A DNA stretch of 64,000 nucleotides. Origin: Clostridium pasteurianum (GTDB lineage Bacteria; Bacillota; Clostridia; Clostridiales; Clostridiaceae). Under the pieces are notes generated by a model. That model saw only the letters and a program-made list of their open reading frames with translations, searched no databases and was not told where the DNA came from. The DNA lies in assembly GCF_001705235.1 (NCBI RefSeq), contig NZ_MCGV01000001.1, positions 3,972,181 through 4,036,180 of the forward strand, written 5' to 3'. Numbering within the stretch: the first letter of the stretch is position 1; every line of letters begins with the position of its first letter. Made by a program: the position numbers and the translations under genes. Positions 36,425 through 51,259 of the stretch are shown in pieces.

Positions 36425-37342
36425 ATGGCAGACGTTTTGTCACAAAGTGAAATAGATGCCCTATTATCTGCCTTATCCTCCGGTGAACTTCAGCCTGATG
36501 AGCTTCCAAAAGACGAGGACAAGCAAAAAGTAAAAGTATATGATTTTACAAGTCCACAGAAGTTTACTAAGGAGCATATAAGAACCCTTGAACTTATTCA
36601 TGATAATTATTCAAGAATAATGTCTAATTATTTAACAGCACAACTTAGGGATAACGTAAAAGTAAAAATAGAAACAGTTGAACAAATAACTTATGAGGAG
36701 TTTATTCATTCAGTACCAAATCCTACAATTTTAACAATATTTAAGATGCCTCCTCTCAGTGGAACTATTTTATTTGAAACGAATCCTCAATTTATAGATC
36801 AGGTTATAGATATACTTCTTGGTGGCAATGGTGAAGGGAAATATAAGCCAAGAGATATAACTGATATAGATAAGAATATTATTATGAAGATAAATCAAGG
36901 ACTAATCGACAACTTAAAATTAGCATGGGGAGATGTGGTTAATGTTGAACCAGAGATAGAATCTCTTGAAACAAATCCGGCACTTAACCAAACCTTGGGT
37001 CCTCATGAACCAGTTGCACTTATAACATTTTCGGTAGATGTTGGACACAGCCACACTTATATGAATATTTGTATACCATATCTTAGCATAGAAAAAATAT
37101 TAGACAAACTTGTTGTACAGTATTGGTATCAGGAAAATGATGAAGAGATAATTGATGAATCAAGAACAAAATTGAGGAAGAGACTGGATGTGGTTGATGT
37201 TCCTTTAACAGCTAAATTAGGATTTAGCAAAATAACTGTGGCTGATTTCTTGAAATTATCTATTGGAGATGTAATAACTTTAGATAATAAGTGCAGCGAT
37301 CCTATTCCTATATATATATATATGATAAGTTACATTATGTAG
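36425..37342 (+). CDS. fliM: Flagellar motor switch protein FliM, frameshifted near C-terminus
   Basis: C-ring switch protein. N-terminal CheY-binding peptide LSQSEIDALLSAL, FliM middle domain (~40-230) and the start of the SpoA domain (~240-). The frame reads normally to VGDVITLDNK-like text and then ends after IPIYIYMISYIM at 305 aa. The missing SpoA tail is present in another frame (37321-37422). The shift occurs in (TA)7 at 37309-37322; six units would restore about 331 aa, the usual FliM length. As read, the protein lacks the FliN/FliY-interacting end. Confidence 0.9.
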   Translation: MADVLSQSEIDALLSALSSGELQPDELPKDEDKQKVKVYDFTSPQKFTKEHIRTLELIHDNYSRIMSNYLTAQLRDNVKVKIETVEQITYEEFIHSVPNPTILTIFKMPPLSGTILFETNPQFIDQVIDILLGGNGEGKYKPRDITDIDKNIIMKINQGLIDNLKLAWGDVVNVEPEIESLETNPALNQTLGPHEPVALITFSVDVGHSHTYMNICIPYLSIEKILDKLVVQYWYQENDEEIIDESRTKLRKRLDVVDVPLTAKLGFSKITVADFLKLSIGDVITLDNKCSDPIPIYIYMISYIM

Positions 37343-37422
37343 CTACACCTGGAATTATAGGTAAAAGTATGGGGATTAAGATATTAGATAAAATTGATAA
37401 GGATGTGGGAAAATATGAGTGA
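37309..37422 (+). other. (TA)7 tract and out-of-frame C-terminal tail of FliM
   Basis: From 37321 the alternative frame reads YDKLHYVATPGIIGKSMG and on to DKDVGKYE with a TGA at 37420-37422, typical of the FliM C-terminus (family: ..P.F.G.PG..G...AV.I). In the corrected frame the stop would overlap the fliY ATG (37415) by 8 bases, the usual coupled arrangement. Confidence 0.85.
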
Positions 37423-38650
37423 TGGATTTCTTTCACAAGAAGAGATAGATTCTCTTTTGAATGGGGGAGAAGATAATTCTGATTCACCTGAAGAGCAGAA
37501 AGAGGATACTGCTAATGATGATAATGGTTTAAATGATATAGAAAAAGATTTATTAGGTGAAATAGGAAATATTTCTATGGGCTCGGCATCTACAGCCCTT
37601 TCAACTATAATTGGTCAAAAAGTTAATATAACTACACCTATTGTAACAGTAACAACACTTAGCGAATTAAAGAAAAACTTTGAGGTTCCAAATGTTGCAC
37701 TTGATGTTAAATATATCAGTGGAATTTCTGGAGAAAATTTGCTTGTAATGAAAGTTACAGACGCTGCTGTTATTGCTAATTTAATGATGGGTGGAGATGG
37801 TAAAGTTGAAAGTAAAACTTTATCAGAAATTGAACTTAGTGCAGTATCGGAAGCCATGAATCAAATGATTGGAGCATCTGCCACTTCCATGGCTACCATG
37901 CTTTTACGTGAGGTAAATATTTCACCTCCAGTATCTAAAATATGGGATTCTAAAACTGATATGTTATCAGAGAATATTAAGGAAGATGAAAGTATAGTTC
38001 AGGTGGCATTTAAATTGACTATTGGTGATTTGGTTGATAGTCAGATTATGCAGATATTGCCTATAGAAACATCGAAAAAAATGATAGGAATAATGATGGG
38101 CGGGAATAATTCTAAAGGTGATGAGGAAAAGCAAAATTCTGAAGAAAGTGCACCTAAAGATAATGGTAATTCACCTGTAAAAGATGAACCTACACCTGCA
38201 GTTACGGCTGCTCCGGAGCAGAAGGCATCACAACCTCAGATGCAAGCAGCATATACTAATACTGCACCACCTCAGACGCCTCAGCCACAAATGCAAGTAC
38301 CACAAGGACAAATGTATGCACAACCTAAAGTTGAGGTTAATAGAGCATCATTTCAGCCTTTGGAAGCTTCAGAGGTCTATGGTGCACCTAAGAATATAGA
38401 TCTTATAATGGATGTTCCACTTGAAATTTCTGTTGTTTTAGGAAGAGCTAAAAAGAATATTAAGGATATTCTTAACTTAGGTACTGGATCACTTATAGAA
38501 CTTGATAAGCTTGCTGAAGAACCAGTTGAAATACTTGTAAATGGTAAAAAGATTGCTTATGGTGAAGTTGTTGTTGTTGATGAAAACTTTGGAGTTAGAA
38601 TTACAAGTATTGTAAGTAATGAAGAGAAAATAAAAAGTTTGAGAAAATAA
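37415..38650 (+). CDS. fliY: Flagellar motor switch phosphatase FliY (FliN-type C-terminus)
   Basis: 411 aa from ATG 37415 (a TTG at 37394 lies upstream of the GTGGGA SD). N-terminal CheY-binding peptide GFLSQEEIDSLL; CheC-like domain (~40-230) with two phosphatase helices, EIGNISMGSASTALS and EAMNQMIGASATSMA; Pro/Gln-rich linker (~245-320, PQPQMQ repeats); SpoA/FliN domain at the C-terminus (PLEISVVLGRAKKNIKDILNLG). In Bacillus FliY is both a switch component and CheY-P phosphatase. The linker is longer than usual. Confidence 0.92.
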   Translation: MSDGFLSQEEIDSLLNGGEDNSDSPEEQKEDTANDDNGLNDIEKDLLGEIGNISMGSASTALSTIIGQKVNITTPIVTVTTLSELKKNFEVPNVALDVKYISGISGENLLVMKVTDAAVIANLMMGGDGKVESKTLSEIELSAVSEAMNQMIGASATSMATMLLREVNISPPVSKIWDSKTDMLSENIKEDESIVQVAFKLTIGDLVDSQIMQILPIETSKKMIGIMMGGNNSKGDEEKQNSEESAPKDNGNSPVKDEPTPAVTAAPEQKASQPQMQAAYTNTAPPQTPQPQMQVPQGQMYAQPKVEVNRASFQPLEASEVYGAPKNIDLIMDVPLEISVVLGRAKKNIKDILNLGTGSLIELDKLAEEPVEILVNGKKIAYGEVVVVDENFGVRITSIVSNEEKIKSLRK

Positions 38651-47387: not shown

Positions 47388-48218
47388 ATGATAATCAATC
47401 ACAATCTTAGTGGAAATACAGCACTTAGTTATTTAAACAAGAATCAAAAAAGTGCTTCAGCTTCAATGGAGAAGTTAAGTTCAGGTTTAAGAATTAACAA
47501 AGCAGCTGATGATGCAGCAGGACTATCAATATCACAAAAGATGCAATCACAAATCAATGGTCTTGATAAGGCACAAAGCAATGCACAAGATGGAATATCA
47601 TTAATTCAGACAGCAGAAGGTGGATTAAATGAAACACAATCAATCCTTCAGAGAATGAATGAATTAGCAACACAAGCTGCAAATGATACAAATGTAAGCT
47701 TAAATAGAAGTGCAGTATCAGCAGAAATGTCAACACTTGCAGATGAAATAGATCATATTTCTCAGCAGACAAACTTCAATGGTGTAAGTCTTTTGACAGG
47801 TAGTACTACTACATTGACATTCCAGATAGGATCAACAGCAAATAGTTATGATTCTATTGGACTTAATTTGAACAGCATAAAAATGGGTTCAGCATCTTTA
47901 TCTGTTGGTACATCAGCTATATCTGTTAGCGATAATACTAAAGCAACAGCTTCAATGAGCCTTATACAGAAAGCAATAGATACAGTATCAACTTCAAGAG
48001 CATATCTTGGAGCAGTACAGAACAGACTTACACATACAATAAATAACCTTTCAACAGAGCAAGAGAATTTAACAACAGCAAATGCAAACATAACAGATGT
48101 TGATATGGCTAAAGAAATGATGAACTACTCAAAAGAGAGCGTTCTTCAACAGGCAGCTCAGTCAATGCTTGCACAAGCTAATCAGAATCCACAACAGGTT
48201 CTTAAATTATTACAATAA
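47388..48218 (+). CDS. hag: Flagellin 1
   Basis: 276-aa filament subunit. D0/D1 N-terminus MIINHNLSGNTALSYLNKN, LSSGLRINKAADDAAGLSISQKM and C-terminus ITDVDMAKEMMNYSKESVLQQAAQSMLAQANQNPQQVLKLLQ (given here as family hallmark). Central domain is minimal (~135-195), Ser/Thr-rich, a likely site of O-glycosylation by the downstream locus. No Cys, no signal peptide; exported by the flagellar system. Differs from flagellin 2 by one residue (Ser139). Confidence 0.95.
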   Translation: MIINHNLSGNTALSYLNKNQKSASASMEKLSSGLRINKAADDAAGLSISQKMQSQINGLDKAQSNAQDGISLIQTAEGGLNETQSILQRMNELATQAANDTNVSLNRSAVSAEMSTLADEIDHISQQTNFNGVSLLTGSTTTLTFQIGSTANSYDSIGLNLNSIKMGSASLSVGTSAISVSDNTKATASMSLIQKAIDTVSTSRAYLGAVQNRLTHTINNLSTEQENLTTANANITDVDMAKEMMNYSKESVLQQAAQSMLAQANQNPQQVLKLLQ

Positions 48219-48300: not shown

Positions 48301-49131
48301 ATGATAATCAATCACAATCTTAGTGGAAACACAGCACTTAGTTATTTAAACAAGAATCAGAAGAGTGCTTCAGCTTCAATGGAAAAGTTAAGTTCAGGTT
48401 TAAGAATTAATAAGGCAGCAGATGATGCAGCAGGACTATCAATATCACAAAAGATGCAGTCACAAATCAATGGTCTTGATAAGGCACAAAGCAATGCACA
48501 AGATGGAATATCATTAATTCAGACAGCAGAAGGTGGATTAAATGAAACACAATCAATCCTTCAGAGAATGAATGAATTAGCAACACAAGCTGCAAATGAT
48601 ACAAATGTAAGCTTAAATAGAAGTGCAGTATCAGCAGAAATGTCAACACTTGCAGATGAAATAGATCATATTTCTCAGCAGACAAACTTCAATGGTGTAA
48701 GTCTTTTGACAGGTGGTACTACTACATTGACATTCCAGATAGGATCAACAGCAAATAGTTATGATTCTATTGGACTTAATTTGAACAGCATAAAAATGGG
48801 TTCAGCATCTTTATCTGTTGGTACATCAGCTATATCTGTTAGCGATAATACTAAAGCAACAGCTTCAATGAGCCTTATACAGAAAGCAATAGATACAGTA
48901 TCAACTTCAAGAGCATATCTTGGAGCAGTACAGAACAGACTTACACATACAATAAATAACCTTTCAACAGAGCAAGAGAATTTAACAACAGCAAATGCAA
49001 ACATAACAGATGTTGATATGGCTAAAGAAATGATGAACTACTCAAAAGAGAGCGTTCTTCAACAGGCAGCTCAGTCAATGCTTGCACAAGCTAATCAGAA
49101 TCCACAACAGGTTCTTAAATTATTACAATAA
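48301..49131 (+). CDS. hag: Flagellin 2
   Basis: 276 aa, identical to flagellin 1 except Gly for Ser at 139; at DNA level the genes are almost identical including third codon positions, so they have been recently duplicated or homogenised by gene conversion. Leader hairpin conserved. Ends with a strong terminator also found after flagellin 3. Confidence 0.95.
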   Translation: MIINHNLSGNTALSYLNKNQKSASASMEKLSSGLRINKAADDAAGLSISQKMQSQINGLDKAQSNAQDGISLIQTAEGGLNETQSILQRMNELATQAANDTNVSLNRSAVSAEMSTLADEIDHISQQTNFNGVSLLTGGTTTLTFQIGSTANSYDSIGLNLNSIKMGSASLSVGTSAISVSDNTKATASMSLIQKAIDTVSTSRAYLGAVQNRLTHTINNLSTEQENLTTANANITDVDMAKEMMNYSKESVLQQAAQSMLAQANQNPQQVLKLLQ

Positions 49132-49564: not shown

Positions 49565-50152
49565 ATTTTTTTTTTTATTGAACTTTAGTAACGTTCTCTT
49601 TTAAGGATACCACAAAAGCCTTTTATAAGACCGTTGTCAATGTTTAGTAGATTTTTAGCTATGTATTGTGGATCTGCTGTGTGCCTAGTACAACCTTTGT
49701 TTGCATATTTAAGTGTTGATTTTATATTTAAATTACGACATATGCGTAAAACACGTTTATCATTCGCTTTAATATCATGATATCGTTCTGAATCATCTCG
49801 TATTCTTTGATATCCTTTATTAGGGCTTTCTTCATGAATTTCTTCAATTTCATAGGCAATGAGGTGTTTTATACTCTCATTTTCAGCACGCAGTTTTTCT
49901 TCCTTTAGTCATGACAGTATTTTCTCCTGTTCCCAAAGATTTTAGCTTTTGATGACCAGTATACTTCTTAATCCATCTTCTGAGTTGAGTTTCTGACCGG
50001 ATTTTATATTTTTTCAGTATTTCAGAAGCTGTATATTTTTTCTTTCAGATAATCATTAATTGCTGCATGTTTTAATACTGAAGAATATCTACTTGCTTTA
50101 CTGCTTGTTCTTAACCCATCAAATCCAAAAGCGAATATTTGTGTTTAAATGC
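49565..50152 (-). pseudogene. IS3-family transposase remnant (OrfA-OrfB), degraded
   Basis: On the minus strand: start-like MAFKHKYS near 50152 with an early frameshift, the OrfA helix-turn-helix (SEILKKYKIRSETQLRRWIKKY), then OrfB text NKGYQRIRDD, RICRNLNIKSTLKY and CTRHTADPQYIAKN, then directly GLIKGFCGILKRERY. The DDE catalytic middle has been deleted. Several frameshifts; not functional. Confidence 0.72.
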
Positions 50153-50419: not shown

Positions 50420-51259
50420 ATGATAATCAATCACAATCTTAGTGGAAACACAGCACTTAGCTATTTAAACAAGAATCAAAAAAGCGCTTCAGCTTCAATG
50501 GAAAAGTTAAGTTCAGGTTTAAGAATCAACAAGGCAGCAGATGATGCAGCAGGACTATCAATATCACAAAAGATGCAGTCACAAATTAATGGTCTTGATA
50601 AGGCACAAAGCAATGCACAAGATGGAATATCATTAATTCAGACAGCAGAAGGTGGATTAAATGAAACACAATCAATTCTTCAGAGAATGAATGAACTTGC
50701 AACACAAGCTGCCAATGATACAAATGTAAGCTTAAATAGAAGTGCAGTATCAGCAGAAATGTCAACACTTGCAGATGAAATAAATCATATTTCTCAGCAG
50801 ACTAATTTCAATGGTGTTAATTTGTTGTCGGCAGATACATCAGTAGCTAATACTTTAACTTTCCAAATAGGTTCAACATCTAATGCATATGATTCTATTG
50901 GACTTAACATAAATAGTATAGCTATGAATGCAACTTCTTTAAGTGTTGATACATCTTCTCTAAGTGTTAGTAACAATGCTCAAGCAACAGGTTCAATGAG
51001 TATTATACAGAAAGCAATAGATACAGTATCAACTTCAAGAGCATATCTTGGAGCAGTACAGAACAGACTTACACATACAATAAATAACCTTTCAACAGAG
51101 CAAGAGAATTTAACAACAGCAAATGCAAACATAACAGATGTTGATATGGCTAAAGAAATGATGAACTACTCAAAAGAGAGCGTTCTTCAACAGGCAGCTC
51201 AATCAATGCTTGCACAAGCTAATCAGAATCCACAGCAGGTTCTTAAATTATTGCAATAA
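50420..51259 (+). CDS. hag: Flagellin 3
   Basis: 279 aa. First ~120 and last ~85 residues match flagellins 1 and 2 almost exactly, while the central segment (~122-195, NLLSADTSVANTLTF, SIAMNATSLSVDTSS) has diverged and is 3 residues longer. This mosaic fits gene conversion at the ends plus diversification of the exposed domain. Own sigma-28 promoter and terminator. Confidence 0.95.
   Translation: MIINHNLSGNTALSYLNKNQKSASASMEKLSSGLRINKAADDAAGLSISQKMQSQINGLDKAQSNAQDGISLIQTAEGGLNETQSILQRMNELATQAANDTNVSLNRSAVSAEMSTLADEINHISQQTNFNGVNLLSADTSVANTLTFQIGSTSNAYDSIGLNINSIAMNATSLSVDTSSLSVSNNAQATGSMSIIQKAIDTVSTSRAYLGAVQNRLTHTINNLSTEQENLTTANANITDVDMAKEMMNYSKESVLQQAAQSMLAQANQNPQQVLKLLQ

What the first reader, a model, noticed from the sequence alone, without database searches (positions are those of the whole stretch)
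36425..37422. fliM is frameshifted at a (TA)7 tract that would be in frame with six units
Seen directly: the FliM frame runs into a TA repeat at 37309-37322 and stops 18 bases later, while the conserved SpoA tail (HYVATPGIIGKSMG..) continues in another frame to a TGA that would overlap the fliY start by 8 bases. Removing one TA, or adding two, restores about 331 aa. Slippage of dinucleotide repeats is a known phase-variation mechanism; a switch in a C-ring gene would turn motility or rotation bias on and off. Alternatives are a fixed mutation in a lab lineage or a sequencing error.
Basis: partly seen in the sequence, partly recalled or inferred. Interest (0 to 1): 0.78.

Follow-up and report, generated by a model that had tools for sequence, protein, structure and literature searches.

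The report
Flagellar motor gene broken at repeat
In this clostridium's genome record the flagellar motor gene fliM is cut short at a stretch of repeated TA letters, the kind of stretch that can shrink or grow when DNA is copied, so the culture may be non-motile, able to switch motility by chance, or simply mis-read at this spot.

Summary
Observation confirmed. fliM (36425-37342, 305 aa) goes out of frame in an alternating TA tract at 37309-37323 and stops at TAG 37340-37342; its conserved C-terminal tail continues in another frame to a TGA that overlaps fliY by 8 bases. The three same-genus relatives held have open 331-332 aa fliM genes with shorter tracts of 7, 11 and 13 nt. The tract is the longest TA run in the genome. 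fliM is the only gene with an internal frame break among 77 conserved genes over 124 kb. The tail still shows coding-like substitutions, so the break looks recent.

Best reading: one slipped-strand indel in a mutable tract, leaving this culture with truncated, probably inactive FliM. The tract needs no special cause: IYIY residues plus AT-rich codons give it, and 0.4 such runs per genome are expected by chance. A selected phase-variation switch is possible but untested: no second isolate or read set was available. A local sequencing or assembly error is not excluded. Interest is modest, because motility genes with frame-shifting repeats are known.

The parts
36425..37342 (+). fliM as read in the record: 305 aa, full FliM domain, FliMN_C/SpoA domain cut short, last residues not homologous
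37309..37323 (+). alternating TA tract, 15 nt, site of the frame change; longest TA run in the genome
37340..37342 (+). premature stop TAG
37324..37422 (+). conserved FliM C-terminal tail, in another frame, ending in TGA
37415..38650 (+). fliY (FliMN_C plus CheC domains); its ATG overlaps the TGA of the fliM tail frame by 8 bases, 72 bases after the premature stop

Best explanation
The sequenced culture carries a recent slipped-strand insertion/deletion in the TA tract of fliM. Shown: the frame changes inside the tract, the product is 305 aa with an incomplete SpoA domain, intact 331-332 aa copies exist in the three same-genus relatives held, and the flagellar and chemotaxis genes examined around it are open. 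Inferred: replication slippage made the change; truncated FliM cannot build a working C-ring with FliY, so cells are probably non-flagellate or non-motile; ribosomes stopping 72 bases before the fliY start may also lower FliY if the two genes are translationally coupled. The tract is an incidental product of the residues IYIY written in AT-rich codons; it makes the locus mutable and in principle reversible, but there is no evidence that it evolved as a switch.
For: The tract is the longest TA run in the 4.68 Mb genome. Tract length differs between the four same-genus species: 7, 11, 13 and 15 nt. 76 of 77 genes conserved with C. acetobutylicum over 124 kb have no internal break; the other five flagged rows are record edges, start-site differences or a diverged but open FlgD-position gene. 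Tail differences from C. acetobutylicum fall 3, 1 and 10 at codon positions 1, 2 and 3, much like 19, 13 and 71 in the rest of the gene, so the tail was under coding constraint until recently. IYIY is written ATA TAT ATA TAT with probability 0.225. Two other coding TA tracts of 13-14 nt lie in open genes with near-complete domain matches, so such tracts exist without a break. Loss of FliM abolished motility and flagella in Listeria (PMC5816908, abstract).
Against: A single record cannot separate a real mutation from an error at the one tract where errors are likeliest. MutS and MutL are intact, so no raised mutation rate is indicated. The length change could equally be one state of a maintained switch.
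Confidence: 0.52

Rival explanations
1. Sequencing or assembly error: the true tract has another length and fliM is intact.
For: The tract is the longest dinucleotide run in the genome, where length errors are likeliest; it is the only internal break among 77 conserved genes; the flagellar genes around it are open; 124 of 127 family genomes with a FliM match have it unbroken.
Against: The record is otherwise clean: 68 homopolymers of 7-9 bases lie in the 77 conserved genes and none of these genes but fliM shows an internal break; coding TA tracts of 13 and 14 nt elsewhere are in open genes.
Confidence: 0.27
2. Selected SSR phase variation: fliM is a contingency locus whose tract length switches motility on and off in clonal populations, captured here in the OFF state.
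For: Tract meets the published dinucleotide cut-off; tracts of 11 nt or more occur in three of four same-genus species; the tail and the other flagellar genes are kept intact, as expected of a gene that is used part of the time; frame-shifting repeats in swrA, flhA and fliP are precedents (PMC2831843, passages).
Against: No isolate or read variation could be examined. The tract is explained by protein and codon use and is only 7 nt in C. guangxiense. The two like-sized relatives' tracts are in frame. Seven units is near the lower limit for useful switching. The tract sits at the far 3' end of the gene, unlike the 5' tracts of swrA and flhA.
Confidence: 0.14
3. Recoding: ribosomal or transcriptional slippage at the TA tract lets some full-length FliM be made from the broken frame.
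For: Repeats allow re-pairing in principle; the tail frame is conserved.
Against: No stable downstream RNA structure (z -0.32, 69 of 200 shuffles fold as well); the three same-genus relatives need no frameshift; no conserved slippery element.
Confidence: 0.04

Closest known systems
Bacillus subtilis swrA poly(A) frameshift phase variation (Kearns et al. 2004, recalled; rates as cited in PMC2831843, passages)
   Same: Frame-shifting simple repeat in a motility gene of a Gram-positive soil bacterium, with a laboratory strain in the OFF frame (PMC12501158 passage: swrA is non-functional in B. subtilis 168)
   Different: Homopolymer near the 5' end of a regulator with measured switching of about 1e-4 to 1e-5; here a dinucleotide tract near the 3' end of a structural motor gene, with no switching data
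Campylobacter coli flhA poly(T) and Helicobacter pylori fliP homopolymer phase variation (as cited in PMC2831843)
   Same: Structural or export flagellar genes turned off by repeat-length change
   Different: Homopolymers, host-associated Gram-negatives, reversibility shown experimentally
Clostridioides difficile flagellar switch (PMC8890394, abstract start in the listing)
   Same: Phase-variable motility in a clostridium
   Different: Recombinase-driven inversion upstream of the flgB operon, not repeat slippage within a gene
Haemophilus influenzae hif TA-repeat pilus switch (recalled, no call)
   Same: TA dinucleotide repeat as the variable element
   Different: Promoter spacing rather than reading frame; pili rather than motility

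Membership tests
SSR phase-variable (contingency) gene | Repeat tract long enough (six or more dinucleotide units) | tested here: met
   15 nt TA run; cut-off from PMC6321876 passages
SSR phase-variable (contingency) gene | Tract lies in the reading frame so that its length decides the product | tested here: met
   Frame changes inside the tract; the two pieces of FliM match relatives in two frames
SSR phase-variable (contingency) gene | Tract kept beyond what composition and protein sequence predict | tested here: inconclusive
   0.4 runs of 15 nt or more expected per genome, IYIY codon probability 0.225; tract 7 nt in C. guangxiense
SSR phase-variable (contingency) gene | Tract length varies between cells or isolates of one strain | not testable with these tools
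   Only one genome per species held; four in the genus; no reads
SSR phase-variable (contingency) gene | Reversible change of phenotype | not testable with these tools
   Needs culture work
FliM | FliM domain (PF02154) | tested here: met
   E 1.5e-55, profile 1-192/192
FliM | Complete C-terminal FliMN_C/SpoA domain | tested here: not met
   Only profile positions 2-47 of 73 in the translated ORF; 2-72 in C. hydrogenum
Programmed frameshifting | Frameshift conserved in relatives, with a stimulatory element | tested here: not met
   Same-genus relatives are open without a shift; RNA z -0.32

The most novel reading that the evidence does not exclude
In a free-living, probably solvent-forming clostridium group, fliM is a dinucleotide-repeat contingency locus: a TA tract in the SpoA coding region, lengthened within this genus, switches the whole flagellum on and off in a clonal population, a slippage route to motility bet-hedging beside the inversion switch of C. 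difficile.
Probability: 0.14. Interest if true: 0.6.

Novelty: new member of a known kind. Interest (0 to 1): 0.33.

Why it matters
If the tract switches, it would be a slippage-based motility switch in a structural C-ring gene of an environmental clostridium; my paper searches listed no fliM example, though only 5 to 15 or so titles per search were seen and few papers were opened. If it is a fixed mutation, the sequenced strain should be treated as a probable non-motile derivative, which matters for work on chemotaxis or biofilms with it. If it is an error, the fliM annotation in the record is wrong.

Tried and rejected
Chance as the sole explanation of the frame break was rejected: one internal break in 77 conserved genes falls in the genome's longest TA run. 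Flagellar decay was rejected: nine flagellar genes outside the window (FlgC, FliF, FliG, FliI, FliP, FlhA, FlhF, FliA, FlgF/G-type) give near-complete matches, and FlgK, FlgL, FliW, FlaG, FliS, a FliD-type protein and flagellin in the window give matches (FlgM and FlaG below their curated cut-offs, and the FliD-type match, covering residues 319-814, below its cut-off). A mutator background was not supported: MutS and MutL are open. Programmed frameshifting was not supported. A plasmid look-up to name the organism gave no close record. The first tail comparison was off by one base and is replaced. One search skipped 17 of 101 loci because of their orientation; two of them (L002, L003) were read. 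Papers on dinucleotide slippage rates were seen only as a listing and gave nothing used here. Reviews PMC11868660 (passages) gave no dinucleotide example.

Full report
What is there. The ORF 36425-37342 encodes 305 aa with a complete FliM domain and an incomplete FliMN_C (SpoA) domain, profile positions 2-47 of 73. Upstream lies a CheW gene and further up a CheA gene; downstream lies fliY with FliMN_C and CheC domains. The frame of fliM enters an alternating TA run at 37309-37323 and stops at TAG 37340-37342. The next frame carries the conserved tail to TGA 37420-37422, which shares 8 bases with the fliY ATG at 37415. There is one copy of the locus in the genome.

Where it comes from. The genome has 4,677,181 bases in two contigs of 4,485,768 and 191,413. 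Four genomes of the genus are held. G003 is probably C. acetobutylicum, from its 3,940,880-base chromosome (recalled size). fliM DNA is 88% identical to G003, and a piece of the 191 kb contig matches G003's small contig in several segments. A comparative-genomics paper (PMC5343299, passages) describes C. felsineum/roseum/aurantibutyricum as a sister group of C. acetobutylicum with a pSOL1-like megaplasmid, so the window probably comes from that group. This is inference; no call names the organism.

Comparison with relatives. The three same-genus relatives have open fliM genes of 331, 331 and 332 aa. Their tracts at the same place are 11 nt (G003), 7 nt (C. guangxiense) and 13 nt (C. hydrogenum). 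Over the family, 127 of 146 genomes have a FliM match at E 1e-40 or better and 19 do not; among the 127, three primary matches are broken: the window's, G152 (stops after 292 codons; the same place as C. tagluense A121, L054) and G062, a fragmented assembly with one internal stop. Three further rows are second, more distant copies. Of the 71 named loci, 69 have a frame of at least 328 aa and two are short: C. tagluense L054 (289) and Caloramator sp. L090 (247). The C. tagluense break lies near the same part of the gene but shows no TA or A/T run, so fliM is lost or mis-assembled in other ways too. FliM breakage at about 2% is the base rate against which this case must be judged.

Is the tract special? 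Seven TA runs of 13 nt or more occur in the genome; this is the longest. A first-order model expects 3.7 runs of 13 nt or more and 0.4 of 15 nt or more. Two of the other six lie in open genes with near-complete domain matches (DUF5697 and GerAC-type), three lie outside ORFs of 40 aa or more, and one touches only short ORFs of 46 and 64 aa. In 34 window genes Ile is ATA in 57.1% and Tyr is TAT in 83.2% of cases, so IYIY gives ATA TAT ATA TAT with probability 0.225. The tract is therefore what the protein and codon use predict; selection for a repeat is not needed.

Is the rest intact and the break recent? Of 182 non-overlapping C. acetobutylicum ORFs of the matching region, 102 had a match and 77 matched at 50% identity or more in 124 kb of the window's genome; six rows were flagged. 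One is fliM. The others are an ORF cut by the window edge, one cut by the end of the fetched stretch, two start-site differences, and a diverged gene in the FlgD position that is open over 254 codons. Genes less than 50% identical, among them several filament genes, were not in this count; those in the window were checked by family match. Nine flagellar genes beyond the window are near-complete. The fliM tail differs from C. acetobutylicum in 11 of 33 codons, 6 of them synonymous, with differences 3, 1, 10 at the three codon positions, which says the tail was read as FliM for most of the time since the two lines split.

Likely consequence. The lost part belongs to the SpoA fold by which FliM pairs with FliN-type proteins; solved C-ring chains match the relative's FliM up to residue 289 and FliN chains match residues 258-324. 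Deletion of fliM or fliY in Listeria abolished flagella and motility (PMC5816908, abstract). I infer that the 305 aa product does not work. This step is not shown.

Error, mutation or switch? The record has no sign of general indel errors: 68 homopolymers of 7-9 bases lie in the 77 genes without a break. A single error at this tract cannot be excluded. Mismatch repair genes are open. Published candidate cut-offs include six or more dinucleotide units, with a warning that such tracts may mutate below 1e-5 (PMC6321876, passages). For comparison, swrA and flhA homopolymers switch at about 1e-4 to 1e-5 and 3e-4 (PMC2831843, passages). No variation data exist here. I give a real recent slippage mutation 0.52, an error 0.27, a selected switch 0.14 and recoding 0.04.

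Verdict. The exciting part, a phase switch, is plausible and cheaply testable from reads, but the evidence at hand favours an incidental mutation in a mutable tract.

Noticed in passing
window 47388-48218 and 48301-49131: Two tandem flagellin genes, 98.9% identical in DNA and 99.6% in protein (276 aa each), with a third flagellin at 50420-51259 (91% identical in protein).
   Followed up: partly
window 49566-49576: A run of 11 T between the flagellin genes, the longest homopolymer in the window; outside the listed ORFs.
   Followed up: no
L054 near 3867 (C. tagluense A121): Another fliM that stops early, at about residue 289, with the tail in another frame but no simple repeat at the break.
   Followed up: partly
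L090 (Caloramator sp. mosi_1): fliM frame ends after 247 codons.
   Followed up: no
G000:C1:2465816-2466691: A MutS-family paralogue match with one internal TAA; the main MutS is open.
   Followed up: no
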